From: a virus
Virus record (IMG/VR): IMGVR_UViG_3300023237_000006
Span: 1 to 64,000 of that record
Direction: 5' to 3' (one strand)
DNA length: 64,000 bases
The position numbers and the translations under genes are program-made. Of the stretch, positions 7,246 through 34,288 are shown one piece after another. The stretch's first letter is position 1. Each line of letters opens with the position of its first letter. The notes beneath the pieces are model-generated. The model was not told the DNA's origin, made no database searches, and worked only from the letters and a program-made list of their open reading frames with translations.

Positions 7246-7273
7246 ATTATGAGTATATTTTCTATAATATCAA
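7246..7273 (-). promoter_or_regulatory. Sigma70-like promoter, TTGATA-16-CATAAT
   Basis: On the minus strand, -35 TTGATA (7268-7273) and -10 CATAAT (7246-7251) are separated by 16 nt, and the ATG at 7239 starts 6 nt after the -10. Predicted transcription begins at the start codon. Confidence 0.6.
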
Positions 7274-7284
7274 CTTTTTTTTAA

Positions 7285-7734
7285 TTAAAGACTAACAGCA
7301 GTAAGCGTCGGTGTATCAGCTTTTATTCTACCAAGTCTAATATTAATTATCCCGTTATAGAAATCCTCAGATAAGAGAACGTTATTATCAAACTGCGTCT
7401 TAGCCTCGTAATATGCTAATTCAGACTTACTATTGCAAAATAATATAATTTTAAAGTCAAAACTCTCTTTCCCTTGAGATTCTATATCCCCTAATAAACT
7501 CTCACTAGATCCACAATATAATCTCCAATCAGTATCTTTTTGAATCCGCCGCTTCCGCTTCTTACCCTTCAACGGGGGATATTTAATGATTGTCTTGCAT
7601 TGCTTCTTACCTATATATCGACGATTATTACTAATATTTGTAATACAATATACAAACCCAAAAAAATCAGCAGGTGTATCGATTTCAGATCTCCAATGAC
7701 CTAGACTAATAATATTATTTTCTTTATCCTTCAT
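7285..7734 (-). CDS. GIY-YIG domain endonuclease-like protein
   Basis: 149 residues. 'GFVYCITNISNNRRYIGKK' (about residues 26-44) is a GIY-YIG motif pair with the usual spacing, and a Glu further on ('YYEAKTQF') could be the metal-binding acid. The family covers homing endonucleases, UvrC-type repair nucleases and phage endonuclease II. A basic stretch 'KGKKRKRR' at residues ~57-64 could bind DNA. There is no adjacent interrupted gene, so it is not obviously a homing enzyme of its neighbour. Its start has no late box nearby. Confidence 0.7.
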   Translation of the reverse strand: MKDKENNIISLGHWRSEIDTPADFFGFVYCITNISNNRRYIGKKQCKTIIKYPPLKGKKRKRRIQKDTDWRLYCGSSESLLGDIESQGKESFDFKIILFCNSKSELAYYEAKTQFDNNVLLSEDFYNGIINIRLGRIKADTPTLTAVSL

Positions 7735-7824
7735 TAGATTAATTTTATTATCTTTTCTAAGATGTTCTTAGGGTCTTTTTAACATAGACATATGTTATTT
7801 AATAGATAAAAAATAAAATCAAGG

Positions 7825-8097
7825 CTAATCTCCAGTCTTATTGTATTTTTTTTTATTCTTCTTTGTTTTTTTAGACTTTTTCTTAGATTTAATAGTTTTC
7901 TTACGAGTTTGTATATCCGGTTTTATGTTATTACCAAACATGTTTCTACTATCCCCTGGTGCATACGAGTCTGTCGTTGTAATATTAGTATCTGAAAATA
8001 TTTTTGCAGTATCGCCGAATGCGCCACCATCCCCCGCTGTCATATCCTCCCTTAATATTTTATTAAAAAAGTCCGCATATAAATTTGCCTTTGCCAT
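7825..8097 (-). CDS. Small late protein with Lys-rich tail
   Basis: 90 residues. The N-terminal part has 'NKILREDMTAGDGGAFG' and the middle 'TDSYAPGDSRNMFG'; similar 'EDMTAG...YAPGD.R' small proteins recur in marine T4-like phages. The last ~25 residues are nearly all Lys with Thr/Ser, which suggests nucleic-acid binding. L-R-E/D at residues 15-18 could be a prohead-protease site. An exact TATAAATA lies 5 nt upstream. The opposite-strand frame 7841-8119 is a shadow. Likely a small virion or internal protein. Confidence 0.65.
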   Translation of the reverse strand: MAKANLYADFFNKILREDMTAGDGGAFGDTAKIFSDTNITTTDSYAPGDSRNMFGNNIKPDIQTRKKTIKSKKKSKKTKKNKKKYNKTGD

Positions 8098-8112
8098 ATT
8101 AGTATTTATAAT
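8085..8112 (+). promoter_or_regulatory. uvsY promoter, TTGCCT-16-TATAAT
   Basis: -35 TTGCCT (8085-8090) and -10 TATAAT (8107-8112) with a 16-nt spacer; the uvsY ATG at 8119 starts 6 nt later. It would start the main recombination/replication operon. Confidence 0.6.
8103..8110 (-). promoter_or_regulatory. Late promoter box, exact TATAAATA
   Basis: Minus-strand TATAAATA ending 5 nt before the ATG at 8097. It overlaps the -10 of the divergent uvsY promoter (8107-8112) by four bases, so the two transcription modes should exclude each other. Confidence 0.75.
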
Positions 8113-8118
8113 TATTTA

Positions 8119-8514
8119 ATGGATCTACTCGAGAAATATATAGAAGAATTGAAAGCCGAGTTGGTAATAGATGAAATGAACGTAGGCGAAGTGCAGAGAC
8201 GCCTGCCAGCACGCCGTCACCATTGGGCTGCAAGGTTGATTAGACATAAGAGGGAGTTAAATAAACTATTAAGGGAGATTGATGTTAGGGCTAATGTTAT
8301 AGCTGCTAAATTGAAGGATGAATCACCTACTAGATTATCCTGGAGTCAAACAAAGGGAGCTGCTATGCAGAGTGTAGAGATTATAAAATATAAGCAGCAG
8401 ATTGAGGATTTAGAGTTAATAATTGAGTTTTTAGAGAAGTCTGAAAAAAACTTATCATCTATCCAGTGGGATATAAAAAATATTATTGCTATTCGGCAGT
8501 TAGAATTACTATAA
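8119..8514 (+). CDS. uvsY: UvsY recombination mediator
   Basis: 131 residues against 137 in T4. UvsY loads the recombinase UvsX onto ssDNA covered by gp32. The sequence follows the marine T4-type UvsY pattern: 'IDEMNVGEVQRRLPARRHHWAARLIRHKRELNKL' in the N-terminal half (quoted in parts: 'RRLPARRHHW', 'RHKRELNKL') and 'IEDLELIIEFLEKSEKNLSS' near the C-terminus. Predicted all-helical. The stop overlaps the ATG of uvsW by one base, and uvsX, gp32, gp46 and gp47 all lie within the next 20 kb, completing the T4 recombination machinery. Confidence 0.85.
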   Translation: MDLLEKYIEELKAELVIDEMNVGEVQRRLPARRHHWAARLIRHKRELNKLLREIDVRANVIAAKLKDESPTRLSWSQTKGAAMQSVEIIKYKQQIEDLELIIEFLEKSEKNLSSIQWDIKNIIAIRQLELL

Positions 8515-9965
8515 TGTCTGTAGAGATTAATTATTTGGTTAATATAGGTCAGTGTATTGTTAAGACTAAAGATGCTGTGCTGATGGAGAGTCTTAGAAAT
8601 AAATTCAGCATTCCTAATGAGGGTACTCGATTTAGTAAGTACTCCCCAGCGAGATTGTATGCTATTACCCCAGGTGGTAAGTTTGAGCCAGGATTATTGT
8701 CAGAAGTAGTTGAAGCTATAAAAGAGATTGATATTAAGTGTAGTATTAAACTCAGCCCGTCAGCTATTCTTACAATATCACCAATTGAAGATCCGGAGAA
8801 TATAAAAATGTTGGATACTAAAGATATTAGCCTGAGATATTACCAGATCAGGATTATACAGAAGGCAATGAGCGCTGGTCGAGGTGTTTGTGTTTTAGGT
8901 ACTGGTGGTGGTAAAACATTAGCAATAGCTACATTAATAAATAATTATTATTTAAGATCTAAGAATAAGAAAAACTTTAGATGCCTCGTATTAGTTCCAG
9001 ATAGAGGGCTTGTTAGGCAGACCTCAGATGACTTCACTGAATATAATGTACCTTATACCCATTGCCCCTGGACTGCAGAGTTTGATCTAGATACTAGTTG
9101 TAATATAGTGGTAGCTAGTAATAAGATAGTACAGAGTAGATTTAAAGATGCAGAATGGCTAAAGTATGTGGATATTGTAGTAGTGGATGAAAGCCATAAG
9201 CTAAAGAATAAAAATAAAATTGGAAAATTAGTAAATAAAATACACACCCACTCAAAGTTTGGATTTACAGGGACTCTCCCGGAGAGCCCCATAGATAAAT
9301 GGTCAGTTATAGGTAAACTAGGGCCGGTATTATATGAAAAGGGTAGTGCTGATCTTAGAGAAGAGGGATACTTAACGGATGTAAGTGTAAGTATACTTAG
9401 ACTGACCCATAAAGGAGGGCCTAAAACCCAGTTTACAAAAGCGGAGTGGACTAGCTCAATAAAATATAAGACAGAGTTAGATTATATTTATAATAGTAAC
9501 TTTAGAAATAATATTATATCTAAAATATCAGATAATTTTAATAATAATATTTTAATATTGGTAAATCACCTCGCGCATGGCAATATATTATACGATATAC
9601 ATAAAGATCTTAAGGATAAGCAAGTGTTTTTTGTTAGTGGTAGTGTGGATATTGATACTCGTGAGAGTATTAAAAAAATAATGGAAAATAGTAATAATGT
9701 TGTATGTATAGCGATGTCATCTGTGTTTTCCACCGGTATTAATATTAAAAATATACATATGATTGTATTTGCAAGTGGGGGTAAGGCGTTTATACGAATT
9801 GTTCAATCTATAGGTAGAGGTCTACGCCTCCATAGTTCTAAAACGACTCTGTTAATTATAGATCTAGCGGATAAATTCGAGTATAGTACTAATCACTTTG
9901 AAAAGAGAACGTTAATTTATACTAGAGAAAAAATTCCATATACCATATCTACAATAAAAGAGTAG
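8514..9965 (+). CDS. uvsW: UvsW RNA-DNA / Holliday-junction helicase
   Basis: 483 residues from the ATG at 8514 (T4 about 500). Superfamily 2 helicase motifs in order: Walker A 'GTGGGKT' (residues ~129-135), motif II 'VVDESHK', motif III 'GFTGTLPE', and motif VI 'QSIGRGLRL'. UvsW unwinds R-loops and branched recombination intermediates and drives the switch from origin-dependent to recombination-dependent replication. An upstream in-frame ATG at 8466 lies inside uvsY; the start overlapping the uvsY stop is preferred. Confidence 0.9.
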   Translation: MSVEINYLVNIGQCIVKTKDAVLMESLRNKFSIPNEGTRFSKYSPARLYAITPGGKFEPGLLSEVVEAIKEIDIKCSIKLSPSAILTISPIEDPENIKMLDTKDISLRYYQIRIIQKAMSAGRGVCVLGTGGGKTLAIATLINNYYLRSKNKKNFRCLVLVPDRGLVRQTSDDFTEYNVPYTHCPWTAEFDLDTSCNIVVASNKIVQSRFKDAEWLKYVDIVVVDESHKLKNKNKIGKLVNKIHTHSKFGFTGTLPESPIDKWSVIGKLGPVLYEKGSADLREEGYLTDVSVSILRLTHKGGPKTQFTKAEWTSSIKYKTELDYIYNSNFRNNIISKISDNFNNNILILVNHLAHGNILYDIHKDLKDKQVFFVSGSVDIDTRESIKKIMENSNNVVCIAMSSVFSTGINIKNIHMIVFASGGKAFIRIVQSIGRGLRLHSSKTTLLIIDLADKFEYSTNHFEKRTLIYTREKIPYTISTIKE

Positions 9966-9971
9966 ATATAG

Positions 9972-9999
9972 TTGATTAGTAGTTTTGATTGCATATAAT
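9972..9999 (+). promoter_or_regulatory. Promoter upstream of gene 55, TTGATT-16-TATAAT
   Basis: -35 TTGATT (9972-9977), 16-nt spacer, -10 TATAAT (9994-9999), with a second TATAAT directly after (10000-10005). The ATG at 10016 lies 10-16 nt downstream, so this transcript would carry a short leader, unlike its counterparts at gp32 and gp41. Confidence 0.5.
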
Positions 10000-10015
10000 T
10001 ATAATAGAGTTTAAA

Positions 10016-10483
10016 ATGGCTGAAGAAATAATAATAAAGAAGAAAAAGAAAAAGAAAAATGAGCATTACTACGTAGACCCTAAAGAGTTTAAGGCAGCAA
10101 TAGCATTATATTATGAAAATGGTATATTTCCAGATTATTTAGGAGAGTGTATAATGAAAATTGCAAACGGTTTAGGTTTTAATGGTAAATTTAGAGATTA
10201 TACATATAAAGAGGATATGATTGGAGATGCTATTGTAAAAATGTATGCAGCTCTTAGAAATCAAAATTTTGATGTAACATCAAAATTCAACCCCTTCTCG
10301 TATTTTACTACTATTGCATTCAGAGCTTTTATAAATAGAATAAAAAAAGAGAAGAGGCTCCATAAGGCTGAAACAGACTTTAGAGAGGAAGTGTATGAGC
10401 AATATATGATTGAATCGAGTGATGGTAAGGTTTATACTAAAACTTCTACTGCATTAGAGGAGGATGATTTCTTTAATGAGTAA
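10016..10483 (+). CDS. 55: gp55 late-transcription sigma factor
   Basis: 155 residues from 'MAEEIIIKKKKKKK' (T4 gp55 185). gp55 is a minimal sigma that lets host RNA polymerase recognise the 8-bp TATAAATA late promoter, activated by clamp gp45. The core 'YTYKEDMIGDAIVKMYAAL' and 'NPFSYFTTIAFRAFINRIKKEKR' (quoted in part: 'NPFSYFTTIAFRAFINRI') corresponds to sigma region 2. The C-terminus 'EEDDFFNE' is a plausible clamp-binding tail. A poly-Lys stretch follows the start. The ATG at 10016 is chosen over 9989 because 9989 lies within the promoter. Its presence fits the many late boxes seen in the window. Confidence 0.9.
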   Translation: MAEEIIIKKKKKKKNEHYYVDPKEFKAAIALYYENGIFPDYLGECIMKIANGLGFNGKFRDYTYKEDMIGDAIVKMYAALRNQNFDVTSKFNPFSYFTTIAFRAFINRIKKEKRLHKAETDFREEVYEQYMIESSDGKVYTKTSTALEEDDFFNE

Positions 10484-10485
10484 TA

Positions 10486-11535
10486 ATGATTAAATCTAGT
10501 AAGTGCGCAATATTTAGCGATATACATATAGGGGTACATCGAGATGATTCGATGTGGCATAGAATTACGCTTGATTGGGTCAGGTGGTTTAAAAGCGAAT
10601 TGGATAAAAGTAATATTAATGATGTAATATTTACAGGAGATTTTTTTCATTATAGAGACTCAATAGCTACTAACACTTTATCCCACGCTTCAACAGTTTT
10701 AGATATTCTGAAAGACAAAAATATGATATTTATAACCGGCAATCATGATTGTTATTATAAAGAGTCCTCAGAGATTAACTCTATCTCAATATTCAACGGT
10801 CGTGAGAATATTACAGTAATAGATAAACCATTTAGTTATAAAACACCCGCTGGTAAAAATATATTTTTTGCACCTTGGGGAACTCCAGTCGAGGATATAC
10901 AAGAATGTGATATATTATTTGGTCATTTTGAGATTGAAACGTTTAAGCTAAACTCTTTTAAAATATGTGACCACGGGCTAACCACCGATTCTGTTTATAA
11001 TAAATCCCCCCTTACAATTACCGGGCACTTTCATCACAAGTCCTTAAGAGAGACGAGTGAGGGTACTATATTATATGTAGGTAGCCCATTTCAGATGGAT
11101 TTCGGGGATCAGGGATCTGAAAAGGGATTTTATTCCATTGATTTAGATACAAGTAAATTAAATTTTACAGTAAATAATTTATCTCCAGTTTTTCATAAGC
11201 TGCATTTATCCGAACTAGTTAAAGCCAATGCAACTATATCAGATCTTAAAAAGAGGGTAGAGGGAAATATAATAAAACTAATTATAGATCAAAGAATATC
11301 CTCCACTGACTCTGATTTTTTATTCCAGCAGATTAGAGCTCTTAGACCTATTAGACTGGATGTAGATCACGATATTAATTTTGATATAATAATTGATGAG
11401 GAGAACTCGCACGACTTCTCTGGAATTGATGTAAGCCAAGCAATTACAGAATTTATTAATATAATGGATATAGATAATAAGTCCCCAGTAGTGGAGTATG
11501 TATTGGATGTCTACAACCGCGCCTCAAATCAATGA
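10486..11535 (+). CDS. 47: gp47 recombination nuclease, SbcD/Mre11-like
   Basis: 349 residues (T4 339). Metallophosphoesterase motifs in order: 'FSDIHIGVH' near residue 10, 'TGDFFHYRD', 'GNHDCYY', and 'GHFHHKS'. With gp46 it forms the Mre11/Rad50-type complex that resects DNA ends to give 3' overhangs for UvsX. It starts 2 nt after gene 55 and its stop overlaps the gene 46 start by 4 nt, so the complex is translationally coupled. Confidence 0.93.
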   Translation: MIKSSKCAIFSDIHIGVHRDDSMWHRITLDWVRWFKSELDKSNINDVIFTGDFFHYRDSIATNTLSHASTVLDILKDKNMIFITGNHDCYYKESSEINSISIFNGRENITVIDKPFSYKTPAGKNIFFAPWGTPVEDIQECDILFGHFEIETFKLNSFKICDHGLTTDSVYNKSPLTITGHFHHKSLRETSEGTILYVGSPFQMDFGDQGSEKGFYSIDLDTSKLNFTVNNLSPVFHKLHLSELVKANATISDLKKRVEGNIIKLIIDQRISSTDSDFLFQQIRALRPIRLDVDHDINFDIIIDEENSHDFSGIDVSQAITEFINIMDIDNKSPVVEYVLDVYNRASNQ

Positions 11536-13343
11536 AACACGTAACATTTAAACAACTTAAAATTCGTAACTTTCTATCAGTCGGAGAAAAATCTGTCGAC
11601 ATCGATTTTACTCCAGGTATGCATGTTATAACTGGGGAGAATAAGGATAAAATGGATAGGAAAAATGGTGTTGGGAAGAGTACCATACCGGATGCTTTCT
11701 TTTTTGCTATTTTCGGGCGACCTATTAGAGATATTAAAAAGGAACTTGTTGTTAATAATATTACCGGGGGGTGCTGCAGTGTTTCGCTTAAGTTTAATAT
11801 ACAATCCCCAGACGATAACAGTAATTACAAAATAGAGAGATCTCTAAACCCGTCTAAGTTATTCTTTTATAAAGACGATGTAGATATTACTAGAGATTCT
11901 ATAGCTAATACAACATCTTATATTTTAAATATACTAGAGGCTTCACCTGATATATTTAAAAATTGTGTAGTAATGACCGCCAATAATACCATACCGTTTA
12001 TGGGTCAAAAGACTATTGCAAAAAGAAAGTTTATTGAAAATATCTTTTCGTTAGAAGCGTTTAGTGAAATGCTTAAATTAGTCAGATCAGATTATAATGA
12101 AATTAAAAAAGATTATGATATTAGTATTACACAATTAGAAGAGAAAACTTCTGCGAGTGCTAATTATGTAACTCAACGAGACAAAATTTTATATAATAGA
12201 AATATAAAATTAGAAGATTATAAACAACGGTATATTACTAATAAAACTAATATACAGCGGCATAAAGACGAGCTGGATGAAATAACTCAAATCGATACAG
12301 ATGTATTTGAAAATACTCTATCAGAATATCTAATAGGGGTAGATAAAATAGAGAATAAAATTAGAAGTCAATTAGAGTATTGTGCAGAGATAAAAACTGA
12401 TATTAAGAGAGATGCAGAAATATATAATGAAGTAGGTACTGATAAAAGTGCCTGCCCCACCTGCCTTAGAGATATTACTGATCATGATAGGGCTTGTATT
12501 GAGGGTGATAAGAAAAATTTATTAAATAAAATATCTGAGCAAAAGAAAAATCTAATTAATTGTACCGACGAGGTAGAGAAATATAAATCTGGTAAGAATA
12601 AATTGCAGTCTGCAATTAACAATATTAGAGAAAAAATTAATAATTTACAACTTAGAGCCAGCTCTAAGCCTAGAATACAAGAAAATATAGAGCAATGTAA
12701 TGAATGGATAAAATCTCTAGAGAGTGATATTAAATTACTTAAGTCTACTAATACTGATATGGATTCATTAATAGATTTGAGTACCAGCGAGATATCAAAT
12801 ATCACAGTCCAGGTTGAAAAGGAGAGAGATATGCTAAATATTATTGATATTGGTAAATTTATTGTATCAGAAGAAGGAGTAAAAGCATATATAGTAAAGC
12901 AGATATTACAGATATTTAACAGTAGATTAGCATATTATTTAAAGAAGATGGATGCAAATTGTATTTGTGTCTTTAATGAATATTTTGAAGAAGATATAAT
13001 TAATGAAAATAATAAAATATGTTCATATTTTAATTTTTCTGATGGGGAGAGAAAAAATATAGATTTAGCGTGTCTATTTACTTTTGCAGACGCGAGGAGA
13101 ATGCAAGGTAATGTAGCATATAACGTAAGCTTTTTTGATGAACTATATGACTCCAGTTTAGATAGCCGTGGGGTAGAATTAGTAAATGATATTCTGCAGG
13201 ATCGTGTTAATAATAATAATGAGTGTATATTTATTATTACCCATCGACCGGAAGCAATAAAAGCTATAGCAAATGATGCAAATATTATATATTTGCAAAA
13301 AGAAAGCGGAATAACTACACGAACTTCACGAGTTGAAGTCTAA
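11532..13343 (+). CDS. 46: gp46 recombination ATPase, SbcC/Rad50-like
   Basis: 603 residues (T4 560). N-terminal ATPase half with Walker A 'RKNGVGKST' (about residues 43-51), long coiled coils, a zinc hook C308-P-T-C311 near the middle, and C-terminal 'FSDGERKNIDL' (ABC signature) and 'SFFDELYDSS' (Walker B). This is the partner of gp47 in end resection and recombination-dependent replication. All catalytic elements are intact. Confidence 0.93.
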   Translation: MKHVTFKQLKIRNFLSVGEKSVDIDFTPGMHVITGENKDKMDRKNGVGKSTIPDAFFFAIFGRPIRDIKKELVVNNITGGCCSVSLKFNIQSPDDNSNYKIERSLNPSKLFFYKDDVDITRDSIANTTSYILNILEASPDIFKNCVVMTANNTIPFMGQKTIAKRKFIENIFSLEAFSEMLKLVRSDYNEIKKDYDISITQLEEKTSASANYVTQRDKILYNRNIKLEDYKQRYITNKTNIQRHKDELDEITQIDTDVFENTLSEYLIGVDKIENKIRSQLEYCAEIKTDIKRDAEIYNEVGTDKSACPTCLRDITDHDRACIEGDKKNLLNKISEQKKNLINCTDEVEKYKSGKNKLQSAINNIREKINNLQLRASSKPRIQENIEQCNEWIKSLESDIKLLKSTNTDMDSLIDLSTSEISNITVQVEKERDMLNIIDIGKFIVSEEGVKAYIVKQILQIFNSRLAYYLKKMDANCICVFNEYFEEDIINENNKICSYFNFSDGERKNIDLACLFTFADARRMQGNVAYNVSFFDELYDSSLDSRGVELVNDILQDRVNNNNECIFIITHRPEAIKAIANDANIIYLQKESGITTRTSRVEV

Positions 13344-13366
13344 CTAATATTACATAATTAATAACA

Positions 13367-14596
13367 ATGATACCATCTCGTAAAGCTGTAGGTTTATTCA
13401 GTTCACCATTCACATCACCATTTACCCCCCCTAGTGTAGATATTGCAAACCTGGCAGATGTTAGGAGTAATAGCCAATCTGAAGCCCTTGGAGGTCTCCC
13501 ACGATCTATTAATTATGTCGCAGATTTTAGCGGGTGCGGGCTGTGGCGTATGCTATGGCCTGAGCATATGCTAAACACTCATAATAAAGCTCTAGTGCAG
13601 AGCTCTGCAGTGATGATTACTTCACCTGAATTTTATGAAGGTGTTAAGGCTATAAGAATACAAAGACAAGCAACCCCTAATCAGTTAGAGTTTGTAAAAT
13701 ATTTAAAGGAAGTAATACAACCAAAGTATGGTTGCCGAATTATATATGAAGTGGACGATATTATATTTAGAGAAGACATCCCTGAGTATAATAAATTTAA
13801 ACCGGCATTTGAGTCAGATGAAATAAGAAATACTTCGGTAGAAATTATGAGGTTATGTGATGAAGTAACAGTAACGTGTGACTTCATGAGAGACTATTAT
13901 AAGGAAAAAATAGATAAGGAGGAAATAACAGTTATACCAAATTTCCCACCTAAATTTTGGATTGGGAACTTCTTTGATGAGAAGAGAGTAGGTCAATTAT
14001 ATAAGAAGCACATAAATAAGCCTAGAATATTATATGCTGGATCTGGGGCACATTTTGATGTAGAGAATAGAGACAAGCAACGTGACGATTTCCACCACGT
14101 TGTAGATTCAATAATAAAGACAAGACATAGATTTCAATGGGTATTTGTTGGCGCATTTCCAGCCGCTCTCCGACCGTATATTAACGCTGGTGAAATTGAG
14201 TTTCACGAATGGCAATCATTTTATAATTACCCGCAAAAGCTACATGATCTAGAGATACAAATGTCAGTAGCCCCTCTGTTTGAAAATAACTTTAACCGCG
14301 GTAAGAGTGACTTAAAATATATTGAAGCATGTGCTCTAGGTATACCTGTAGCATGTCAGGATATGTGTACGTATAAAGATGCCCCTATTAAGTTTAAAGA
14401 CGGTGACGGGATGATAAAGTGCATTGAAGATACATTATCTAACGGTAAAAAATATAGAGCGGAAGCTCATAAGAGATATAAAGTAGCTCAAAATAGATTT
14501 TTAGAGAATGAAGAAAACATAAACTGTTATTTAGAACTTATTACCTTGCCTTACGGGCATCCTGATCGTATAATGTTATCGAGATACAATCGATAA
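13367..14596 (+). CDS. GT-B type glycosyltransferase
   Basis: 409 residues. The C-terminal half has the GT-B nucleotide-sugar layout: 'RILYAGSGAHFD', 'WVFVGAFPAAL', 'SVAPLFENNFNRGKSDLKYIE' (quoted in part: 'NRGKSDLKYIEACALG'), ending with a helix-rich tail. The N-terminal half has 'RIIYEVDDIIF'. The acceptor is unknown; DNA, virion proteins or host surface are all possible. It lies between gene 46 and the polymerase, is read in the same direction, and ends 3 nt before the polymerase start. A weak promoter-like TTGAAG-16-TAATTA ends 6 nt before its ATG. Confidence 0.8.
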   Translation: MIPSRKAVGLFSSPFTSPFTPPSVDIANLADVRSNSQSEALGGLPRSINYVADFSGCGLWRMLWPEHMLNTHNKALVQSSAVMITSPEFYEGVKAIRIQRQATPNQLEFVKYLKEVIQPKYGCRIIYEVDDIIFREDIPEYNKFKPAFESDEIRNTSVEIMRLCDEVTVTCDFMRDYYKEKIDKEEITVIPNFPPKFWIGNFFDEKRVGQLYKKHINKPRILYAGSGAHFDVENRDKQRDDFHHVVDSIIKTRHRFQWVFVGAFPAALRPYINAGEIEFHEWQSFYNYPQKLHDLEIQMSVAPLFENNFNRGKSDLKYIEACALGIPVACQDMCTYKDAPIKFKDGDGMIKCIEDTLSNGKKYRAEAHKRYKVAQNRFLENEENINCYLELITLPYGHPDRIMLSRYNR

Positions 14597-14599
14597 TTT

Positions 14600-16141
14600 A
14601 TGATAGGATATAGAAATATTGCGTACATACCTAGAACGAAGGAGGTAAAAGTTTGGACCTGGGATTCTGATGGTAATAGAATATCATACACTAAGTCGTA
14701 CACCCCTTATGTGTATATTGAAGATAAAAATGGGACAGATACTTCAATATTTGGTACTAAGCTCAAGCGTCGAGATTTTCAAACGCAGTACGCTCGAACT
14801 AGGTTTGTTCGAGATACTGGCATAAAGAGACTTTTTGAAAATCTACCTACTCATCAGCAATTTCTGTTAGATAAATACTGGGAGTTTAATGAGGGTGAGG
14901 AGTTTACATCCAAACCGCTCAAAGTACAATTTATAGATATTGAGGCTGTTGCGAGGGATGAATTTCCGAATGCTGAGGAGGCCAAGTACCCAATCAACGT
15001 TATAACTATTTATGATAATTTATTAAAGCATACATTTGTGTGGGGAGTTGGCGCATTTGACTCCTCTAAGTATCCTCCCGAAGATTTGACTTATTATAAT
15101 TGCCGGAATGAATTAGAATTGTTAGATAAAATGCTAACATTTTTTGAGAGTGACTATCCAGATGTAATCTCGGGATGGAACTCTGCTGGATTTGACATGC
15201 CATATATTATTAATAGAATAAACAATATTATGGGGGAGGATGAAATAAAGAGATTATCGCCCATAGGTAATGTTTATAATAGATCAATCAGAGGTATGTA
15301 TGGTAGAAATGATTTGAGATGGTATATCGATGGTGTATCTTGCTTAGATTATCTTGATGTATATAAACGATTTCAATTAAAAAATAGAGACTCATATAAG
15401 TTAGATAATATTGCAAATATAGAATTAGATTTAAGAAAAATTGATTACGGTAATATGCATATTGCAGATTTATGCGTTCAGGATTGGCAGACCTTTGTAG
15501 AGTATAATATTCATGATGTATTTTTACTTCAGAGATTAGATGAGGAATTGAGATATATGGAACTATTACGAATGTTAGCATATGTAGGTCTAACTACATT
15601 AGAGGCAGCTATGGGGGCAGTAGCTGTCATTAATGGAGCTGCAGCAATTAGAGCTAGACATAGAGATCAAAAAATTGCCACATTTATAAGGCATGAAGAT
15701 ACAGGGAAAAATCCAGGAGCGTATGTGAGCGAGCCTCAGGGAGGTTTTCAGCAATATGTAGTATCCTTTGACGCTAATTCCCTATACCCTAATATAATGA
15801 TATCCTTAAATATGTCCCCCGAGACAAAGGTCGGTAAAATTATATCTAAGAACGATAAGACAATTACAGTCAGGTATGTAAACGGTGAGACATTCGAATT
15901 ACCTTTAGAACAATTCGGTAGATTAGTACATAAGGAAAAAATAGCTATATCTAAAGCTGGCATTTTATTCTCTCAAAAGAAAAAAGGCATAATGCCCGAG
16001 ATGGTAGATTTTTATTATAATAAGCGCGTTGAAATTAAAAAATCATTGCAGGCTATAAAAATAGAGGCAAATGAGGTAGACAAGGCTATCAAAAAATTAG
16101 AGAAACTTAATAAGAAAAATGCCTTAGGTGTCTTAAGTTGA
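14600..16141 (+). CDS. 43A: gp43 DNA polymerase, N-terminal half (exonuclease and motif A)
   Basis: 513 residues of a family B DNA polymerase. Proofreading motifs: 'FIDIEAVA' (Exo I, around residue 113), 'NSAGFDMPYI' (Exo II) and 'YNIHDVFLL' (Exo III). Polymerase motif A is 'FDANSLYPNIM' (around residue 390). The protein then ends in a charged helix ('VDKAIKKLEKLNKK') and a TGA, before motifs B and C. These are in the next frame-shifted gene, 16189-17325. The two halves sum to 891 residues, close to the ~898 of T4 gp43, so no domain seems lost. Presumably the halves assemble into one enzyme. Confidence 0.9.
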   Translation: MIGYRNIAYIPRTKEVKVWTWDSDGNRISYTKSYTPYVYIEDKNGTDTSIFGTKLKRRDFQTQYARTRFVRDTGIKRLFENLPTHQQFLLDKYWEFNEGEEFTSKPLKVQFIDIEAVARDEFPNAEEAKYPINVITIYDNLLKHTFVWGVGAFDSSKYPPEDLTYYNCRNELELLDKMLTFFESDYPDVISGWNSAGFDMPYIINRINNIMGEDEIKRLSPIGNVYNRSIRGMYGRNDLRWYIDGVSCLDYLDVYKRFQLKNRDSYKLDNIANIELDLRKIDYGNMHIADLCVQDWQTFVEYNIHDVFLLQRLDEELRYMELLRMLAYVGLTTLEAAMGAVAVINGAAAIRARHRDQKIATFIRHEDTGKNPGAYVSEPQGGFQQYVVSFDANSLYPNIMISLNMSPETKVGKIISKNDKTITVRYVNGETFELPLEQFGRLVHKEKIAISKAGILFSQKKKGIMPEMVDFYYNKRVEIKKSLQAIKIEANEVDKAIKKLEKLNKKNALGVLS

Positions 16142-16188
16142 TCTACCAAATTTACACATTACCATATTAAAGAGGGGTATATATTAAA

Positions 16189-17325: not shown

Positions 17326-17349
17326 ACTATACGTATTATACTTTACAAT
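17322..17349 (+). promoter_or_regulatory. Promoter TTGAAC-16-TACAAT
   Basis: -35 TTGAAC (17322-17327), 16-nt spacer, -10 TACAAT (17344-17349). The ATG at 17356 starts 6 nt after the -10, which predicts a leaderless transcript for the 127-residue protein and uvsX. Confidence 0.6.
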
Positions 17350-17355
17350 ATATGT

Positions 17356-17739: not shown

Positions 17740-17745
17740 TAATTT

Positions 17746-18931: not shown

Positions 18932-18939
18932 TATAAATA
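18932..18939 (+). promoter_or_regulatory. Late promoter box, exact TATAAATA
   Basis: TATAAATA ending 5 nt before the ATG at 18945. It would place lipoprotein, protease and queC under late control inside the replication region. Confidence 0.78.
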
Positions 18940-23244: not shown

Positions 23245-23252
23245 TATTTATT
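23245..23252 (-). promoter_or_regulatory. Late promoter box, AATAAATA
   Basis: Minus-strand AATAAATA ending 5 nt before the ATG at 23239. Confidence 0.62.
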
Positions 23253-23303
23253 ACTCTGAGTGGATTTTTTAATACTATTGTATATAATTATGTTAATAAT
23301 AGT

Positions 23304-23311
23304 TATAAATA
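23304..23311 (+). promoter_or_regulatory. Late promoter box, exact TATAAATA
   Basis: TATAAATA ending 5 nt before the ATG at 23317, which supports that start and predicts late, leaderless expression of the amidotransferase. Confidence 0.78.
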
Positions 23312-23316
23312 AAGAT

Positions 23317-23985: not shown

Positions 23986-23989
23986 ATTT

Positions 23990-24679: not shown

Positions 24680-24683
24680 AAAA

Positions 24684-24712
24684 TTGATTTATACAATAGT
24701 ATATCATATAAT
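24684..24712 (+). promoter_or_regulatory. Promoter TTGATT-17-TATAAT before gene 41
   Basis: -35 TTGATT (24684-24689), 17-nt spacer, -10 TATAAT (24707-24712). The gp41 ATG at 24719 is 6 nt downstream, so transcription should start on the start codon. Confidence 0.7.
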
Positions 24713-24718
24713 ATACAT

Positions 24719-26050
24719 ATGAAGATTGATCATAATTTTATGGAGAGAGTTATTCTCTTCAGAGCTCTAACTAACGAGGGTTATTTGGCTGCAGTCATAG
24801 ACTTTATAACTCCAGATATTTTTGAAGATCGGCATATTAGTGACATTATAGGGGTTATATCTGATTTTCATGATAGGAATAATACTTGCCCTAGTCTAAC
24901 CGAAGTAAAAACTCTACTTACTACCGAAGAGCTTATTAAATCCTTTAAATCTGCTATAGAGCAAGTTAAGGATGTAGATGTAAAATTCAATAATGAAGAG
25001 CTCATAAGAAATACAGAACAATTTATTAAAGAACGTAGAGTTTATAATACCCTACTTGAAACTGCAAAAACTATAAGTGATGGTGATGCAGATACATCAC
25101 TCATACTTACAAAATTTGAAGACGCGTGTAATATAAATCTTATTACTGATCACGGCATTGAAGTATTTGGTGATATTGATAAAATTGCAGAAGATCTTAC
25201 AAAGAAAGACCCAGTAATATCTTCTGGGTGGGATTGGATGGATGAGATGCTAGGGGGAGGTTTTCAAAAAGTGGGTCGTGCTATATATGTTTTTGCAGGT
25301 AGACCTAATGTAGGTAAGAGCATATTCTTAGGCAACATAGCTAATAATATATCTACTAAAAATAAAAACGTTTTAGTTGTTACGTTAGAAATGTCGGAAA
25401 TGGTATATGCAAAAAGAATGTGTTCTAATATTACAGCAATACCTATATCAGAACTACCAAGTTCGACGACCGCAATGCAAAGAGAGATAAATAAAATAAA
25501 TGAGAGTCATCCAGATCGTCGAATATTTATAAAAGAATTTCCCCCATCAACTGTAACAACAAAACAGTTATCTGCATTTGTTAAAAAAATGGAATCTACT
25601 GGCATCAACTTTGATGCTATTGTAGTTGACTATCTAAATTTACTCCACTCTACTAACGGCTCTAATTCATATGAGAGAGTTAAAGATATAATTGAACAGC
25701 TTCGAGCGATGAGTTATATTTACGAATGCCCTATTATTACAGCTACACAATTAAACCGAGGGGGGATGGATGAGGAAAAACCAGGTATGAATAGTTTATC
25801 TGAATCAGTAGGGGTTGCAGCCACTTCAGATTTTATAGCTAGCTTATGGCAGGATGAAGAAGATGTTGAATATGAAACTATACATGTCGGGGTAATGAAA
25901 AACCGATTTGGTAGAGCAATCGGATCGTCTCGATTTAAAATTGACTACACTACACTAACTCTTAGTGAGTTAGTCGACTCAGATTTGCTACCTATTGATG
26001 GCGAAGAAAATGATATATATAATAGCTTTAAAATGTTAGCAGATAGTTGA
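24719..26050 (+). CDS. 41: gp41 replicative DNA helicase, DnaB-like
   Basis: 443 residues (T4 475). N-terminal helical domain, then a RecA-like motor with Walker A 'AGRPNVGKSIF' (about residues 196-206), 'VVTLEMSEM', Walker B 'IVVDYLNLL', and 'ITATQLNRGG'. It is the hexameric 5'-3' helicase of the replisome, loaded by gp59 and paired with primase gp61 (33233-34255, opposite strand). Strong host-type promoter directly upstream. Confidence 0.92.
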   Translation: MKIDHNFMERVILFRALTNEGYLAAVIDFITPDIFEDRHISDIIGVISDFHDRNNTCPSLTEVKTLLTTEELIKSFKSAIEQVKDVDVKFNNEELIRNTEQFIKERRVYNTLLETAKTISDGDADTSLILTKFEDACNINLITDHGIEVFGDIDKIAEDLTKKDPVISSGWDWMDEMLGGGFQKVGRAIYVFAGRPNVGKSIFLGNIANNISTKNKNVLVVTLEMSEMVYAKRMCSNITAIPISELPSSTTAMQREINKINESHPDRRIFIKEFPPSTVTTKQLSAFVKKMESTGINFDAIVVDYLNLLHSTNGSNSYERVKDIIEQLRAMSYIYECPIITATQLNRGGMDEEKPGMNSLSESVGVAATSDFIASLWQDEEDVEYETIHVGVMKNRFGRAIGSSRFKIDYTTLTLSELVDSDLLPIDGEENDIYNSFKMLADS

Positions 26051-26066
26051 TTTTTTAGGATGTATA

Positions 26067-26074
26067 TATAAATA
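26067..26074 (+). promoter_or_regulatory. TATAAATA box before the DHH gene
   Basis: Exact TATAAATA, 7 nt before the ATG at 26082. A TTGATT at 26047-26052 stands 16 nt before TAAATA (26069-26074), so this may be a combined host-type and late promoter. Confidence 0.5.
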
Positions 26075-26081
26075 ATTTATA

Positions 26082-26954
26082 ATGATATTTGTTTGGACGG
26101 ACGCAGATTTAGATGGTGCTGGAGCGAGCTTAATGCTCTCCTGGGTTATGGGAAAATCAGCACCCACCAAGGTAACTACTTGTAAGACTTTTGAGAGAGA
26201 TTTTAAAAGTTGGTATAATCATGAAGGCCATAAATATAATAAAATATTTATATGTGATATGGATGTTAGTGGGTGTATGGATCTAGTCGACCAGCATAAT
26301 ATATTTATATTTGACCATCACGATAGTCATATGGAGCATGTCGGTAAATATAAAAAGGCCCAAACTATAATAAAAGAGGCAGGATCCACAACTAAGCTAA
26401 TATACGAGTTTTTTAAAGATTCATTATCTCTGTTTAAAGAGCAGAAGCTACTTATTGAGCTAGTTGATGATTATGATAGCTATCAATTAAAATATGAACT
26501 ATCCGCAGATCTAAATAAATTGTTTTGGGGATTTTCTGGCAATCGCGTTCAGAAATTTGCTGATGCTTTCTATAATGGATTTACCGGATTTACATATACC
26601 CATAGTAATATAATTAATTTTTATAATGTAAAGCTAAAAGAGACTATTGAGGGGCTAGAAATACATACCGGTCAAGTAACTATAGGTGACGAAAATGTAA
26701 AGGTAGTTTCAACAGTTGCATCATTCGGTCTTAATGATGTGGCGCATAATATAATTGAAACCCATTCTGCTGATATTGGTATAGTAGTTAACCCAAATTC
26801 TGGGACTGTATCATTTAGAAGATCTAAAGAATGTAACATACCAGTTAATAAATTAGCTAGTAAATTAGCAGCAGGAGGGGGGCATGAGGCCGCCGCCGGA
26901 GGCACTTTAACCGATACATTTTTTACCTTTTGTAAAACACTTAAACCGATATGA
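26082..26954 (+). CDS. DHH-family phosphoesterase
   Basis: 290 residues. N-terminal DHH domain with 'TDADLDGAGAS' (motif I, residues ~6-16), 'CDMDVSG' (motif II) and 'FDHHDSH' (motif III), and a C-terminal DHHA1-type 'GGGHEAAAGG'. The family includes RecJ exonuclease, NrnA nano-RNase/pAp phosphatase and cyclic-di-AMP hydrolases. The compact size suggests an NrnA-like small-substrate enzyme rather than RecJ, but a role in recombination or oligonucleotide salvage cannot be separated by sequence. It lies between helicase and SSB genes. Confidence 0.85.
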   Translation: MIFVWTDADLDGAGASLMLSWVMGKSAPTKVTTCKTFERDFKSWYNHEGHKYNKIFICDMDVSGCMDLVDQHNIFIFDHHDSHMEHVGKYKKAQTIIKEAGSTTKLIYEFFKDSLSLFKEQKLLIELVDDYDSYQLKYELSADLNKLFWGFSGNRVQKFADAFYNGFTGFTYTHSNIINFYNVKLKETIEGLEIHTGQVTIGDENVKVVSTVASFGLNDVAHNIIETHSADIGIVVNPNSGTVSFRRSKECNIPVNKLASKLAAGGGHEAAAGGTLTDTFFTFCKTLKPI

Positions 26955-27250
26955 TTCCAAGAAATACATTTAATCCGATAGACAGTATTAACTTCGCTGA
27001 GAGTGATCACCAACTCTTATGCTTCTGCAGTTTTGTTTGTATTTTACATAATAAAAAGTTGAATCTTCCAAATATATTCCTATTATTATTAGAGAATAAG
27101 AATTATAGAACGTTATTCCAAGCCATGACTGGAATTGATACTAACTATGATACATTTAAGAGATTCATACAATACGATCCCTCTTTATCTAAAAGTAAAT
27201 ATATTTCAAAATATCTGAATAAATGTCCGCAGGAACTGGTGATAAAATAA
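26951..27250 (+). CDS. Hypothetical protein in the gp33 position
   Basis: 99 residues. No residues recognisable as T4 gp33 are seen. Its place directly before a gp59-like gene and gp32 equals that of gene 33 in T4 (order 33-59-32), and its length is near the 112 residues of gp33, the late-transcription co-activator. The sequence is helical and hydrophobic in the centre ('NLPNIFLLLLENKNY') with a C-terminal Lys/Tyr-rich region. It overlaps the DHH gene by 4 nt and the next gene by 28 nt. Assignment to gp33 is only positional. Confidence 0.6.
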   Translation: MIPRNTFNPIDSINFAESDHQLLCFCSFVCILHNKKLNLPNIFLLLLENKNYRTLFQAMTGIDTNYDTFKRFIQYDPSLSKSKYISKYLNKCPQELVIK

Positions 27251-27879
27251 CAAATTTTGAGAAACAAATTTATAATACATATTTATCAACTACTAGAGGT
27301 GTACAAAATAAGCCCTGGAGACCCAGATTAAATTTCGATAAATTCCCGGAAGTTAATCTAATGTATTGTCGTAAGATTTCCTTAAAATTGACTCAGTTTC
27401 CCTGGATATCTCTATCCGACTTTTTTTATGCCCCATTTTATGAAGATAGATCAATTCGAATAAATTTGGAATATTTTGCCTCAATGAAGTCCATGAATTC
27501 ATATATGAGGTATATGAAGTATTTAGAATCATTACCACCAGATGCTCCTGAGATTTTAGAGAGAGTAATTTCATCTCTTAGATTTATTAATAAATACTGT
27601 ATGGAACATAAAATAACTGTTAGTGATTACTTTAATGAGATGTCTGGAACTATACCAACTACTATTAAGCACATCAAAGAGAGGCGAGTATGGATATATG
27701 CCCTACTAGAGTTTAACGAATTTAGTAAGATGATACAACGATGCGATATAGAGGTAGTGCGTCTTATGTTTGGCGACGACTTCTTCGATCGAATTGAAGT
27801 ATGTAGATTTAAATATTTAAACAACAAAATAGCAAAAAAAACAATAAAACTGATACTTAAAAAGTTGATAACCACATAA
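27223..27879 (+). CDS. 59: Probable gp59 helicase loader
   Basis: 218 residues (T4 gp59 217), located directly upstream of gene 32 as in T4. Predicted all-helical and basic. A central 'YMRYMKYLESLP' followed by 'TIPTTIKHIKERRVWIYALLEF' occupies the place of the T4 C-terminal helical domain, though identity is low. gp59 loads gp41 onto gp32-covered forks. The assignment depends mostly on synteny and size. The start at 27223 lies inside the previous gene. Confidence 0.5.
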   Translation: MSAGTGDKITNFEKQIYNTYLSTTRGVQNKPWRPRLNFDKFPEVNLMYCRKISLKLTQFPWISLSDFFYAPFYEDRSIRINLEYFASMKSMNSYMRYMKYLESLPPDAPEILERVISSLRFINKYCMEHKITVSDYFNEMSGTIPTTIKHIKERRVWIYALLEFNEFSKMIQRCDIEVVRLMFGDDFFDRIEVCRFKYLNNKIAKKTIKLILKKLITT

Positions 27880-27892
27880 AAGCAATTATAAT
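27865..27892 (+). promoter_or_regulatory. Promoter TTGATA-16-TATAAT before gene 32
   Basis: -35 TTGATA (27865-27870), 16-nt spacer, -10 TATAAT (27887-27892), followed by a second TATAAT and then the ATG at 27899. Transcription is predicted to start at the start codon. Overlaps the end of the gp59-like gene. Confidence 0.7.
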
Positions 27893-31715: not shown

Positions 31716-31720
31716 GTATT

Positions 31721-32155
31721 ATGGAACAAAATGTACGTCCAGTAAAAATAATTTCGCCTATTACAGGGCATCCTGTATCACCGACTTTAAGGACAATTGA
31801 ATATAGAGATCGAACTGTAGTTGAAGCACGATGGATAGACCCTAGCGTGGGTACCTTCTTAAGAAAGGGTATAGTATCGACAGTTCACCACGAATTAAAC
31901 GAATCTGTTGAGCGTAATAACTCCGTCAGCTGCCCTGACGCTGTACGTGATATTTTATTATCGATTGCGCACGGCGAGATCGATGCCTATGATGTTATGA
32001 ATCACCCTAACACTATGCAAGAGAGAGAGGCGTCTAAGCATATACAACAAATGTATGATGATGTAGTTGTAGAAAACCCATCTCTACACCCTGATGATGA
32101 CTTCGAGAGTATATTTAGTAAGGTAGAAGCTGATATTGAGAAACTATATTCATAA
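31721..32155 (+). CDS. Late hypothetical protein
   Basis: 144 residues, no family recognised. N-terminal part contains 'RTIEYRDRTVVEARWIDP' and the C-terminal half is acidic and helical. Late box at standard spacing upstream. The next gene starts 4 nt after its stop. A virion or assembly role is suggested by late control only. Confidence 0.6.
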   Translation: MEQNVRPVKIISPITGHPVSPTLRTIEYRDRTVVEARWIDPSVGTFLRKGIVSTVHHELNESVERNNSVSCPDAVRDILLSIAHGEIDAYDVMNHPNTMQEREASKHIQQMYDDVVVENPSLHPDDDFESIFSKVEADIEKLYS

Positions 32156-32159
32156 TACT

Positions 32160-33236
32160 ATGAGACGTCATAAAATAAATGAAGCAAGAGATGGTAGATC
32201 TGGCGCTCGGTACCACTCAGCTAGGACAAACGCAGGCCCATCACCATCACCTGGAGCTTCTCCTGTAGGTAGATCTGATTTCAATCCAGAGTCCCCCAGT
32301 AAAAGTAATATAAAAGATCCGAGAGACGCAGGGGTCTCAGATCATATGAAACTGTTTAACCAGTTTGTTACAGCAATGAGAATTGTCTATAAACAAGATA
32401 TGGGAGATCAGTTAGAATCTACGCTAAGTAATATACTTGAGTCTATTAGGAGATTTCGACAAGCTTCTTTTATTTTAGCAGATCCAAAGAATGCAAAAAG
32501 CCTATATGGGGGTAATATAAATTTTGATAGGTATAAGCAAGAGGCTGAAACTGCCAGGGTTGAAATTCAAGCTGCTCATAAATCTAATAAGCCCATATTA
32601 TCGAAGCTTATAACAAAAGCTGTAAGAAGTTTATATCTAGCTGCGTCGCCTAGTGATAGAAATAATATAAAGACGGCAAAAAGCTTTAATGATATATCAG
32701 AGGCTGATCTTGATAGCCTTAATATAGATGAGGCTACTTTAGTATATGAAATTTACTTTGCAGGAGGCAAGCCATCTGCCAGCGAAATAGAAGATAAGGT
32801 TTCTAGGATTTTTGAATCCTTTATAACCCTCAAAGAGCAACAATTTAAATCTGAAGGAAATTCTACAGGGCAGAGTTTTGACCCTTATGAGTTTTTAACA
32901 ACTTTTGCTAAGTCTGCAAAGACCTCTCAGGATTTTACGGCTCGTGTTAGAAAGCAAAAAAGTGACCCGATGGCAGCTCCTGAGGCCGCTAGAAGTAAAT
33001 TATCTAAAGACGTACAGCAATTGGCTAAAGAGCTAAAGAAAGCTCTTAGTAAAAATAATTACGAAGCAGCAAAAGCTATACTGAGTGATAATGGCCGTGA
33101 GAGCCTTATTAGTATAGTAGATGATATTGAGTTAGATCAAGCCTCTGAGAGAGATTTAATTATCTCTTTGTATAATGAGTGTTTATCATTATTAGATGCA
33201 TCTGCATTATATTTAGTAGAGTCTCATATTTCTTAA
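32160..33236 (+). CDS. Late hypothetical protein with prohead-type N-terminus
   Basis: 358 residues from the ATG at 32160; the longer frame from 32136 would overlap the previous gene. The start gives I-N-E/A at residues 6-9, a prohead-protease-like site, followed by a disordered Ser/Pro/Gly segment (to about residue 65) and a long helical region. Rich in Lys, Asp and Ser. Probably a virion or internal head protein (inference). It converges on the primase gene and shares the tetranucleotide TTAA as both stop codons. Confidence 0.6.
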   Translation: MRRHKINEARDGRSGARYHSARTNAGPSPSPGASPVGRSDFNPESPSKSNIKDPRDAGVSDHMKLFNQFVTAMRIVYKQDMGDQLESTLSNILESIRRFRQASFILADPKNAKSLYGGNINFDRYKQEAETARVEIQAAHKSNKPILSKLITKAVRSLYLAASPSDRNNIKTAKSFNDISEADLDSLNIDEATLVYEIYFAGGKPSASEIEDKVSRIFESFITLKEQQFKSEGNSTGQSFDPYEFLTTFAKSAKTSQDFTARVRKQKSDPMAAPEAARSKLSKDVQQLAKELKKALSKNNYEAAKAILSDNGRESLISIVDDIELDQASERDLIISLYNECLSLLDASALYLVESHIS

Positions 33237-34255
33237 GCCTCAGCTGATATAGCAATCTTAGCTCCCATACCTCTAAACGAGTTATCAACTATATATTTTG
33301 TTGGTAGCTCGTTTATCTTTAGGTCTATTGCAATATCATTAAAGTCTTTATACTTATTACCTAGACCTCTCGGCCATACAAATATATTTTCACCTAAATC
33401 GGCAAGTATGTTAGATTTTAATCTAGAGGCTCTATCTTTTTGTTGAGAATCTAAAACCCATATTCTTTTATATAATGGGAGTTCTTGAAGCTGAGATTGT
33501 TGGACGTTCGTAAAGCTAGTTGTTGACTTTTCTTGTATACCTGCAACAGCGACACCATTCCTACAAAAAAAGCTATTGATCGGCCCCTCAAATAAGAAAA
33601 TATACTCCAAGGAAGGATCTATATTATTAAACCCGTACAAGCTCTTTATACCGTCAGTTTTCGATAAATATTTTGGAAGGCTATCATCCATAATGGATCT
33701 AGATTGATAGAAAATAATCTTTTCAGAATTATCATAAAAAGGTATAATCAGCCTATTTTTATGAACGAAATCAGATAAGGAAACAAATATACCTTTAGGT
33801 CGATTAACGGCCGTATCAATATACCGTCCCTTTATGACTTGTAGTGCCTGCTGTATAACTTTATTATCACTATAAAATTTTACTTGACTCGGATCAAATA
33901 AATTTATACAGTCATCAGGTAATGTTTTTACAACTCGTCTGCTTTCAACATTCTCTCGAGTCTTTAGGTATTTATCTACATCAATATCAAAATCTCGAGC
34001 TTCCTCTAAGATTTCATCATAAGTTAGTGATCCTACCTCTTTAATCCATTTTATAGACTTGGATGACCACCCGCAATTATGACAGTATATAATATCATTA
34101 GCTGGTATATAGTAACATCTCTGCTTTTTACCTAATGACTTACCCTCACGGCATACCGGGCATCCCGCCTGATATGAATCATTATACTTATTATGCTTAG
34201 TGTTATGACCGTACTGAAAAAATTTTAATACGGTATATTCTCTAGGAATATCCAT
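33233..34255 (-). CDS. 61: gp61 DNA primase
   Basis: 340 residues (T4 342). N-terminal zinc-binding domain with 'CPVC' (about residues 31-34) and 'CHNC' (about residues 58-61), followed by a TOPRIM-type core containing 'FLFEGPINSFFC' and 'RIWVLDSQQKDRA'. It makes RNA primers with helicase gp41. It lies alone on the minus strand with a host-type promoter. Zinc ligands are intact here, in contrast to gp32 and QueC. Confidence 0.9.
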   Translation of the reverse strand: MDIPREYTVLKFFQYGHNTKHNKYNDSYQAGCPVCREGKSLGKKQRCYYIPANDIIYCHNCGWSSKSIKWIKEVGSLTYDEILEEARDFDIDVDKYLKTRENVESRRVVKTLPDDCINLFDPSQVKFYSDNKVIQQALQVIKGRYIDTAVNRPKGIFVSLSDFVHKNRLIIPFYDNSEKIIFYQSRSIMDDSLPKYLSKTDGIKSLYGFNNIDPSLEYIFLFEGPINSFFCRNGVAVAGIQEKSTTSFTNVQQSQLQELPLYKRIWVLDSQQKDRASRLKSNILADLGENIFVWPRGLGNKYKDFNDIAIDLKINELPTKYIVDNSFRGMGAKIAISAEA

Positions 34256-34260
34256 ACCTT

Positions 34261-34288
34261 AGTATACGAACTTTCCCTTATTTTGCAA
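34261..34288 (-). promoter_or_regulatory. Primase promoter TTGCAA-16-TATACT
   Basis: Minus-strand -35 TTGCAA (34283-34288), 16-nt spacer, -10 TATACT (34261-34266), 5 nt before the ATG at 34255. The perfect inverted repeat GCAATTATTGC (34285-34295) overlaps the -35 and could be an operator. Confidence 0.6.

What the first reader, a model, noticed from the sequence alone, without database searches (positions are those of the whole stretch)
7246..34288. Host-type promoters also end 5-6 nt before the ATG
Six TTGnnn-16/17-(TATAAT-like) promoters are placed as the late boxes are: 7239 gene (TTGATA-16-CATAAT-6-ATG), uvsY (TTGCCT-16-TATAAT-6), 17356 gene (TTGAAC-16-TACAAT-6), gp41 (TTGATT-17-TATAAT-6), gp32 (TTGATA-16-TATAAT-6) and primase (TTGCAA-16-TATACT-5). 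A sigma70 -10 box 6 nt before +1 makes these leaderless too. The spacing is the same for two unrelated promoter classes, which points to a translation-side requirement: host ribosomes must start well on 5'-terminal AUG.
Basis: partly seen in the sequence, partly recalled or inferred. Interest (0 to 1): 0.72.

Follow-up and report, generated by a model that had tools for sequence, protein, structure and literature searches.

The report
Phage promoters ending at start codons
In a group of uncultured T4-like phages, the switches that turn genes on sit so close to the genes that the messages should begin exactly at the first codon with no ribosome-landing site, which suggests that their unknown hosts read messages in an unusual way.

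Summary
All six -35/-10 pairs lie where stated, with the -10 box ending 5-6 nt before ATG, and I found a seventh (35193). Such sites are not enriched in the DNA at large (102 found, 102.5 expected) but are strongly enriched at this one distance from start codons (8 against 0.26 in shuffles).

The same holds in related phage contigs of 80-230 kb. Pooled, the sigma70-type boxes peak 6 nt before ATG and the late boxes at 5 nt. That is the 1-nt difference expected if both classes start RNA on the A of ATG. Shine-Dalgarno motifs are at background in all six genomes; T4 and Melnitz-3 have abundant SD motifs and leaders. The placement is kept upstream of uvsY, gp41 and primase at 38-60% protein identity, sometimes with GTG starts. 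A third class outside the window (GGAAC-N5-TATAAT) often abuts start codons too.

Leaderless initiation looks like a standard mode of this lineage, but it is not required: several gp32 homologues and gp55 carry short leaders without SD, and operon-internal genes have neither. The host is unidentified and no 5' end has been mapped.

The parts
7246..7273 (-). sigma70-type promoter TTGATA-16-CATAAT, -10 ends 6 nt before ATG 7239 (gene 6673-7239, unknown)
8085..8112 (+). promoter TTGCCT-16-TATAAT, 6 nt before ATG 8119 of uvsY; its -10 overlaps the late box of the divergent gene 7825-8097
   Evidence: kept at d=6-7 in homologues at 38-61% identity
17322..17349 (+). promoter TTGAAC-16-TACAAT, 6 nt before ATG 17356 (gene 17356-17739, phrog_527)
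   Evidence: G010 homologue has d=8
24684..24712 (+). promoter TTGATT-17-TATAAT, 6 nt before ATG 24719 of gp41 helicase
   Evidence: d=6 with GTG in G001, G002, G004
27865..27892 (+). promoter TTGATA-16-TATAAT, 6 nt before ATG 27899 of gp32
   Evidence: promoter kept in nearly all relatives, distance variable
34261..34288 (-). promoter TTGCAA-16-TATACT, 5 nt before ATG 34255 of primase
   Evidence: d=5-7 in 13 of 15 distinct homologues that have a strong promoter
   Evidence: d=5 in G001
26067..26074 (+). late box TATAAATA 7 nt before ATG 26082 (DHH phosphoesterase), preceded by TTGATT
9972..9999 (+). promoter TTGATT-16-TATAAT 16 nt before ATG 10016 of gp55: a counter-example with a leader of about 10 nt
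10016..10483 (+). gp55-like late sigma factor, which explains the late boxes
8103..8110 (-). late box TATAAATA 5 nt before ATG 8097 of the divergent gene, overlapping the uvsY -10
18932..18939 (+). late box TATAAATA 5 nt before ATG 18945, an example of the late class
36097..36112 (+). GGAAC-N5-TATAAT followed after 6 nt by an in-frame internal ATG; the only member of the third class inside the window (function doubtful)

Best explanation
These are real sigma70-type promoters of the phage's replication genes, placed so that RNA polymerase starts on the first base of the start codon. The mRNAs are therefore leaderless and carry no Shine-Dalgarno sequence, like those made from the gp55-dependent late promoters of the same genome. 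The phage lineage as a whole does not use SD initiation. Promoter-proximal genes start on a 5'-terminal AUG or GUG. Operon-internal genes start at or near the stop codon of the previous gene, probably by coupling. This implies a host whose ribosomes initiate well on 5'-terminal start codons and do not need SD. Shown from sequence: the boxes, the distances, their conservation and the absence of SD. Inferred: the transcription start points, leaderless translation, and the property of the host.
For: (1) Position-specific enrichment: 8 against 0.26 shuffled. Relatives G001, G002, G003 and G007 have 7, 7, 17 and 24 against 0.35-1.0 shuffled; G004 is weak (2 against 0.45); T4 has 0. (2) Pooled over six genomes, sigma70 -10 boxes peak at 6 nt (5:16, 6:33, 7:16 of 146) and late octamers at 5 nt (5:60, 6:27, 7:9 of 134). 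The late octamer begins at -13 (PMC2988020), so it spans -13 to -6, and the sigma70 hexamer spans -12 to -7; a 1-nt shift of the mode is what +1 = A of ATG predicts, and the shift is significant (P about 1e-6). (3) SD motifs at -15 to -4 are at background in all six (2-9%, control 4-8%); T4 61%, Melnitz-3 62%, HTVC008M 51% by the same method. (4) Orthologues keep the distance while the sequence changes: uvsY in G010, G001, G002, G003 and G007 (d=6-7, 38-61% identity), gp41 in G001, G002 and G004 (d=6), primase 13 of 15. (5) In the pelagiphages HTVC008M and Mosig, genes with an abutting promoter lack SD (about 10%) although other genes have it (54%). (6) Abutting starts in the relatives are ATG or GTG, never TTG, the same as the rule measured in mycobacteria (PMC4633059). 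(7) A third class, GGAAC-N5-TATAAT, abuts ATG at 5-8 nt in 17 of 18 cases in G002.
Against: No 5' end is mapped, and sigma70 start points scatter by 1-2 nt, so 1-3 nt leaders are possible. The comparison of the two classes anchored on T(-7) is close but not identical (P=6e-4). gp32 homologues often have 2-5 or 16-22 nt leaders without SD. The 66-69%-identical gp41 relatives have lost the promoter. Many of these genes can also be read through from upstream promoters. The host is unknown, so its translation cannot be checked.
Confidence: 0.77

Rival explanations
1. Compaction without selection for a 5'-terminal AUG. Once SD is not needed, deletion removes everything between promoter and gene, and the ATG comes to lie as near as it can while still being transcribed.
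For: No SD in the lineage; very dense genomes; the box cannot sit nearer than about 5 nt or the ATG would not be transcribed, which alone gives a lower edge.
Against: The peak is narrow and differs by 1 nt between classes as the +1 geometry predicts; counts fall sharply beyond 7 nt although 16-28 nt leaders exist and persist in gp32; intergenic gaps of these genes are not minimal (median 21-30 nt in five of the six genomes).
Confidence: 0.15
2. The TATAAT-like stretch is an AT-rich, unstructured translation-start context (or remains of stop codons) and not a promoter; the -35 match is chance.
For: Promoter-like pairs are no more frequent than chance in the DNA at large, and ATAAT-like words are common before ATG in this genome.
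Against: The paired -35 at 16-17 nt is enriched only at the promoter distance; TTGA-16-TATAAT is conserved upstream of gp32 even where it has moved 16-22 nt away; primase and uvsY keep both boxes while the bases between diverge.
Confidence: 0.04
3. The ATGs are misassigned and true starts lie downstream behind real leaders with ribosome sites.
For: Starts were taken as the first ATG of each frame.
Against: gp32 homologues share M1, F4, N5, M8 and F9 right after the promoter; uvsY, gp41 and primase alignments mostly begin at residues 1-3; there is no SD signal upstream of the called starts in these genomes.
Confidence: 0.03

Closest known systems
Leaderless phage mRNAs such as lambda cI from PRM (own knowledge; leaderless phage transcripts are mentioned in PMC5312081)
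   Same: Transcript expected to start on the AUG of the first gene.
   Different: There a single gene in a phage that otherwise uses SD; here several promoter classes of a whole lineage without SD.
T4 gp55/gp45 late promoters (TATAAATA; PMC2988020)
   Same: Same octamer, gp55 homologue in all relatives tested, sliding clamp gene present in the window.
   Different: In T4 the box lies 12-35 nt before the ATG and SD motifs are abundant; here mostly 5-6 nt and no SD.
Pelagibacter phages HTVC008M and Mosig EXVC030M
   Same: 7 and 5 late boxes lie exactly 5 nt before an ATG, and genes with abutting promoters mostly lack SD.
   Different: About half of their other genes have SD, and sigma70-type sites show little or no comparable peak.
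Mycobacterial leaderless genes (PMC4633059)
   Same: RTG (ATG or GTG, not TTG) at the 5' end is sufficient; about a quarter of transcripts.
   Different: Cellular genes in a host that also uses SD; no actinobacterial marker (WhiB) was found in these phages.

Membership tests
sigma70-type promoter | -35 TTGACA-like and -10 TATAAT-like hexamers 15-18 nt apart | tested here: met
   seven sites, spacing 16-17
sigma70-type promoter | transcription starts about 7 nt after the -10 | not testable with these tools
   needs 5'-end mapping
leaderless mRNA | 5' end at or within a few nt of the start codon | tested here: inconclusive
   predicted from box position and the 1-nt class shift; not mapped
leaderless mRNA | no SD upstream of the start | tested here: met
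   0% SD in promoter-abutting genes of the six genomes
leaderless mRNA | start codon AUG (or GUG), not UUG | tested here: met
   ATG or GTG only, no TTG in the relatives
T4-type late transcription | gp55 homologue, sliding clamp and TATAAATA boxes | tested here: met
Bacteroidota-type promoter (TTTG/TAnnTTTG) | TAnnTTTG at -7 | tested here: not met
   by reading, the seven -10 regions have no TAnnTTTG
SD-dependent phage genes | purine-rich SD 5-10 nt before starts | tested here: not met
   2-9% against 4-8% control; T4 61%

The most novel reading that the evidence does not exclude
A lineage of T4-like phages makes its promoter-proximal messages leaderless from three separate promoter classes (sigma70-type, gp55 late, and an apparently undescribed GGAAC-N5-TATAAT class) and has given up SD initiation entirely, matching an unidentified host, or a phage-altered ribosome, for which a 5'-terminal RUG is a main start signal.
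Probability: 0.4. Interest if true: 0.8.

Novelty: new variant of a known kind. Interest (0 to 1): 0.62.

Why it matters
Leaderless phage messages are known as single cases. A whole phage lineage in which early-type, late and a third promoter class all start on the start codon, with no SD signal, would show that translation-start mechanism shapes promoter architecture genome-wide. It would also be a sequence-readable clue to the host's ribosomes, give a way to call start sites in SD-less viral genomes, and predict that the host (unknown, probably an aquatic bacterium) is a leaderless-competent species that has not been studied for it.

Tried and rejected
Host identification: scans of 84,980 species genomes with gp32 and terminase alignments found no relative; no WhiB and no psbA, so neither an actinobacterial nor a cyanobacterial marker; two tRNAs lie outside the window but were not informative. 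Phage-encoded bS21 as a way to alter SD use: none in seven genomes. RegB, T4's nuclease that cuts SD-like GGAG sites: none except in T4. MotA-type reading of GGAAC boxes was rejected because the element lies at about -23 to -19 with fixed spacing. ECF -35 (GGAAC) was rejected because of the 5-nt spacing to TATAAT. Papers: no report found of this arrangement in T4-like or pelagic phages; the library holds open-access papers only.
Full report
WHAT IS THERE. The window is bases 1-64000 of a 111,925-base viral contig of an uncultured T4-like phage, about 35% G+C. It encodes UvsY, gp41 helicase, gp32, primase, a DNA polymerase in two pieces, UvsX, gp55 and the gp45 clamp; a terminase lies outside the window. 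Cultured relatives are distant: gp32 and gp41 are about 28-33% identical to those of cyanophages, pelagiphages and Methylophilales phages.

THE SIX SITES. Every site is present exactly as written. A seventh of the same kind is at 35193 (TTGAAA-16-TAAAAT-6-ATG). Promoter-like pairs in general are not enriched (102 against 102.5 expected in 7000-26999), so taken alone the motif would be worthless in DNA this rich in A+T. Distance to the start codon is what is not random: -10 boxes with a -35 partner end 5-7 nt before an ATG in 8 genes of the record, against 0.26 in shuffles (maximum 2 of 300), and 1 at 489 internal in-frame ATGs. One of these 8 (26082) is better read as a late box.

THE SAME IN RELATIVES. 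I took five relatives as contigs of 80-230 kb (G001-G004, G007), another T4-like contig (G005), and T4, Syn9, Melnitz-3, HTVC008M and Mosig as yardsticks, all with one gene-calling rule. In the window's phage and the five relatives SD motifs are at background (2-9% against 4-8%). T4 (61%), Melnitz-3 (62%), HTVC008M (51%), Mosig (52%) and Syn9 (29%, control 12%) have them. sigma70-type sites at 5-7 nt number 8, 7, 7, 17, 2 and 24 in the six, against 0.35-1.0 in shuffles (G004 with 2 is not significant), and 0 in T4, 1 in Syn9, 2 in Melnitz-3. Late boxes lie 4-7 nt before ATG in 12 of 15, 15 of 15, 13 of 22, 24 of 38, 12 of 16 and 22 of 28 genes, and in 0 of 24 in T4. G005 does not share the pattern clearly.

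A ONE-NUCLEOTIDE TEST. The late octamer begins at -13 (numbering in PMC2988020), so it occupies -13 to -6, and the sigma70 hexamer occupies -12 to -7 (established knowledge). If both classes start RNA on the A of ATG, the gap between box and ATG should be 5 for late boxes and 6 for sigma70 boxes. The pooled modes are 5 (60 of 134) and 6 (33 of 146), and the distributions differ as predicted (P about 1e-6). Anchored on the shared T at -7 the two are close but not identical (P=6e-4), the late class lying about half a base further out. The base before ATG is a pyrimidine more often than at other genes (74% and 79% against 60%; P=0.04 and 4e-4), which fits the usual start-site preference but is weak.

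ORTHOLOGUES. uvsY keeps a -35/-10 pair at 6-7 nt in G010, G001, G002, G003 and G007 at 38-61% protein identity; in G001 and G002 the start codon at that distance is GTG. gp41 keeps it at 6 nt with a GTG start in G001, G002 and G004. Primase keeps it at 5-7 nt in 13 of 15 distinct homologues with a strong promoter, many with GTG. gp32 keeps the promoter (TTGA-16-TATAAT) in nearly all relatives but not the distance: 6-7 nt in 7 of 21, 8-11 nt in 6, and 15-28 nt in 7 with a strong site, with A-rich leaders and no SD. The gp41 relatives nearest in protein sequence have lost the promoter. So leaderless placement is common and long-lived but not obligatory.

START CODONS. When GTG and TTG starts are allowed, abutting promoters in the relatives stand before ATG or GTG and never TTG. 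In mycobacteria ATG and GTG, but not TTG or CTG, work at the 5' end (PMC4633059). This agrees with leaderless initiation but does not identify the host.

GENES WITHOUT SUCH PROMOTERS. In the six genomes these have no SD either (3-10%) and mostly start within 15 nt of the previous stop codon (59-70% of same-strand neighbours), whereas promoter-abutting genes have median gaps of 21-30 nt in five of the six. This suggests two start modes, leaderless and coupled; coupling is inferred.

A THIRD CLASS. In 76-112 kb of the record, outside the window, and in G002 there are boxes GGAAC-N5-TATAAT with fixed 5-nt spacing (15 in each, one of the 15 in the record lying inside the window at 36097; 0.05 or fewer in simulated sequence). 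In G002, 17 of 18 (a looser -10 included) have an ATG 5-8 nt downstream that opens a reading frame, mostly of 48-159 codons. In the window's phage more than half have leaders or mini-ORFs of 5 codons. GGAAC lies near -23 to -19, where neither a -35 box, an extended -10 nor a T4 MotA box is expected. I know of no such class, but did not search the literature for it specifically.

PELAGIPHAGES. HTVC008M and Mosig have 7 and 5 late boxes exactly 5 nt before an ATG. Genes with abutting promoters in those two phages have SD in about 10% of cases, against 54% of other genes. Late leaderless messages may therefore be more widespread in marine T4-like phages than the SD-less lineage.

WHAT IT MOST LIKELY IS. 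Functional sigma70-type promoters that make leaderless messages for replication genes, in a lineage that does not use SD. Shown: boxes, distances, conservation, absence of SD. Inferred: start sites, translation mode, host. A requirement for 5'-terminal AUG on the part of the host is not shown; tolerance plus a preference fits better. Host searches failed, and phage bS21 and RegB are absent.

LIMITS. Gene calls are simple; relatives are not independent; the weight matrix is generic; all statements on RNA are predictions. Gene starts are supported by conserved N-termini for gp32 and by alignments that mostly begin at residues 1-3 for the others.

Noticed in passing
window 36097; record G000 76484-111367 (L002-L004); G002 (the record of L055) 2727-21926 and 103023: Apparently undescribed promoter-like class GGAAC-N5-TATAAT with fixed spacing, 15 copies on one strand in G000 and 18 in G002; in G002 17 of 18 stand 5-8 nt before an ATG.
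   Followed up: partly
window 8085-8119: Two divergent genes 21 bp apart: the uvsY sigma70-type -10 overlaps the late box of the gene on the other strand, each abutting its own ATG; the same layout is kept in G010. Early and late transcription may exclude each other there.
   Followed up: partly
HTVC008M and Mosig (L128-L135, L161-L167): Cultured pelagiphages have late boxes exactly 5 nt before ATGs (7 and 5 genes); genes with abutting promoters there mostly lack SD although about half of the other genes have it.
   Followed up: partly
G005 (L193-L199): AAACACTAA-like motif within 60 nt upstream of about 45 of 205 genes; unexplained, possibly another SD-independent start or promoter signal.
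   Followed up: no
window 14600-16141 and 16189-17325: DNA polymerase gp43 is split into two adjacent genes.
   Followed up: no
record G000 88447 and 102908 (L003, L004): Third-class boxes followed by 5-codon mini-ORFs (MKTNL*, MRNDD*) just before the real gene, perhaps for re-initiation.
   Followed up: no
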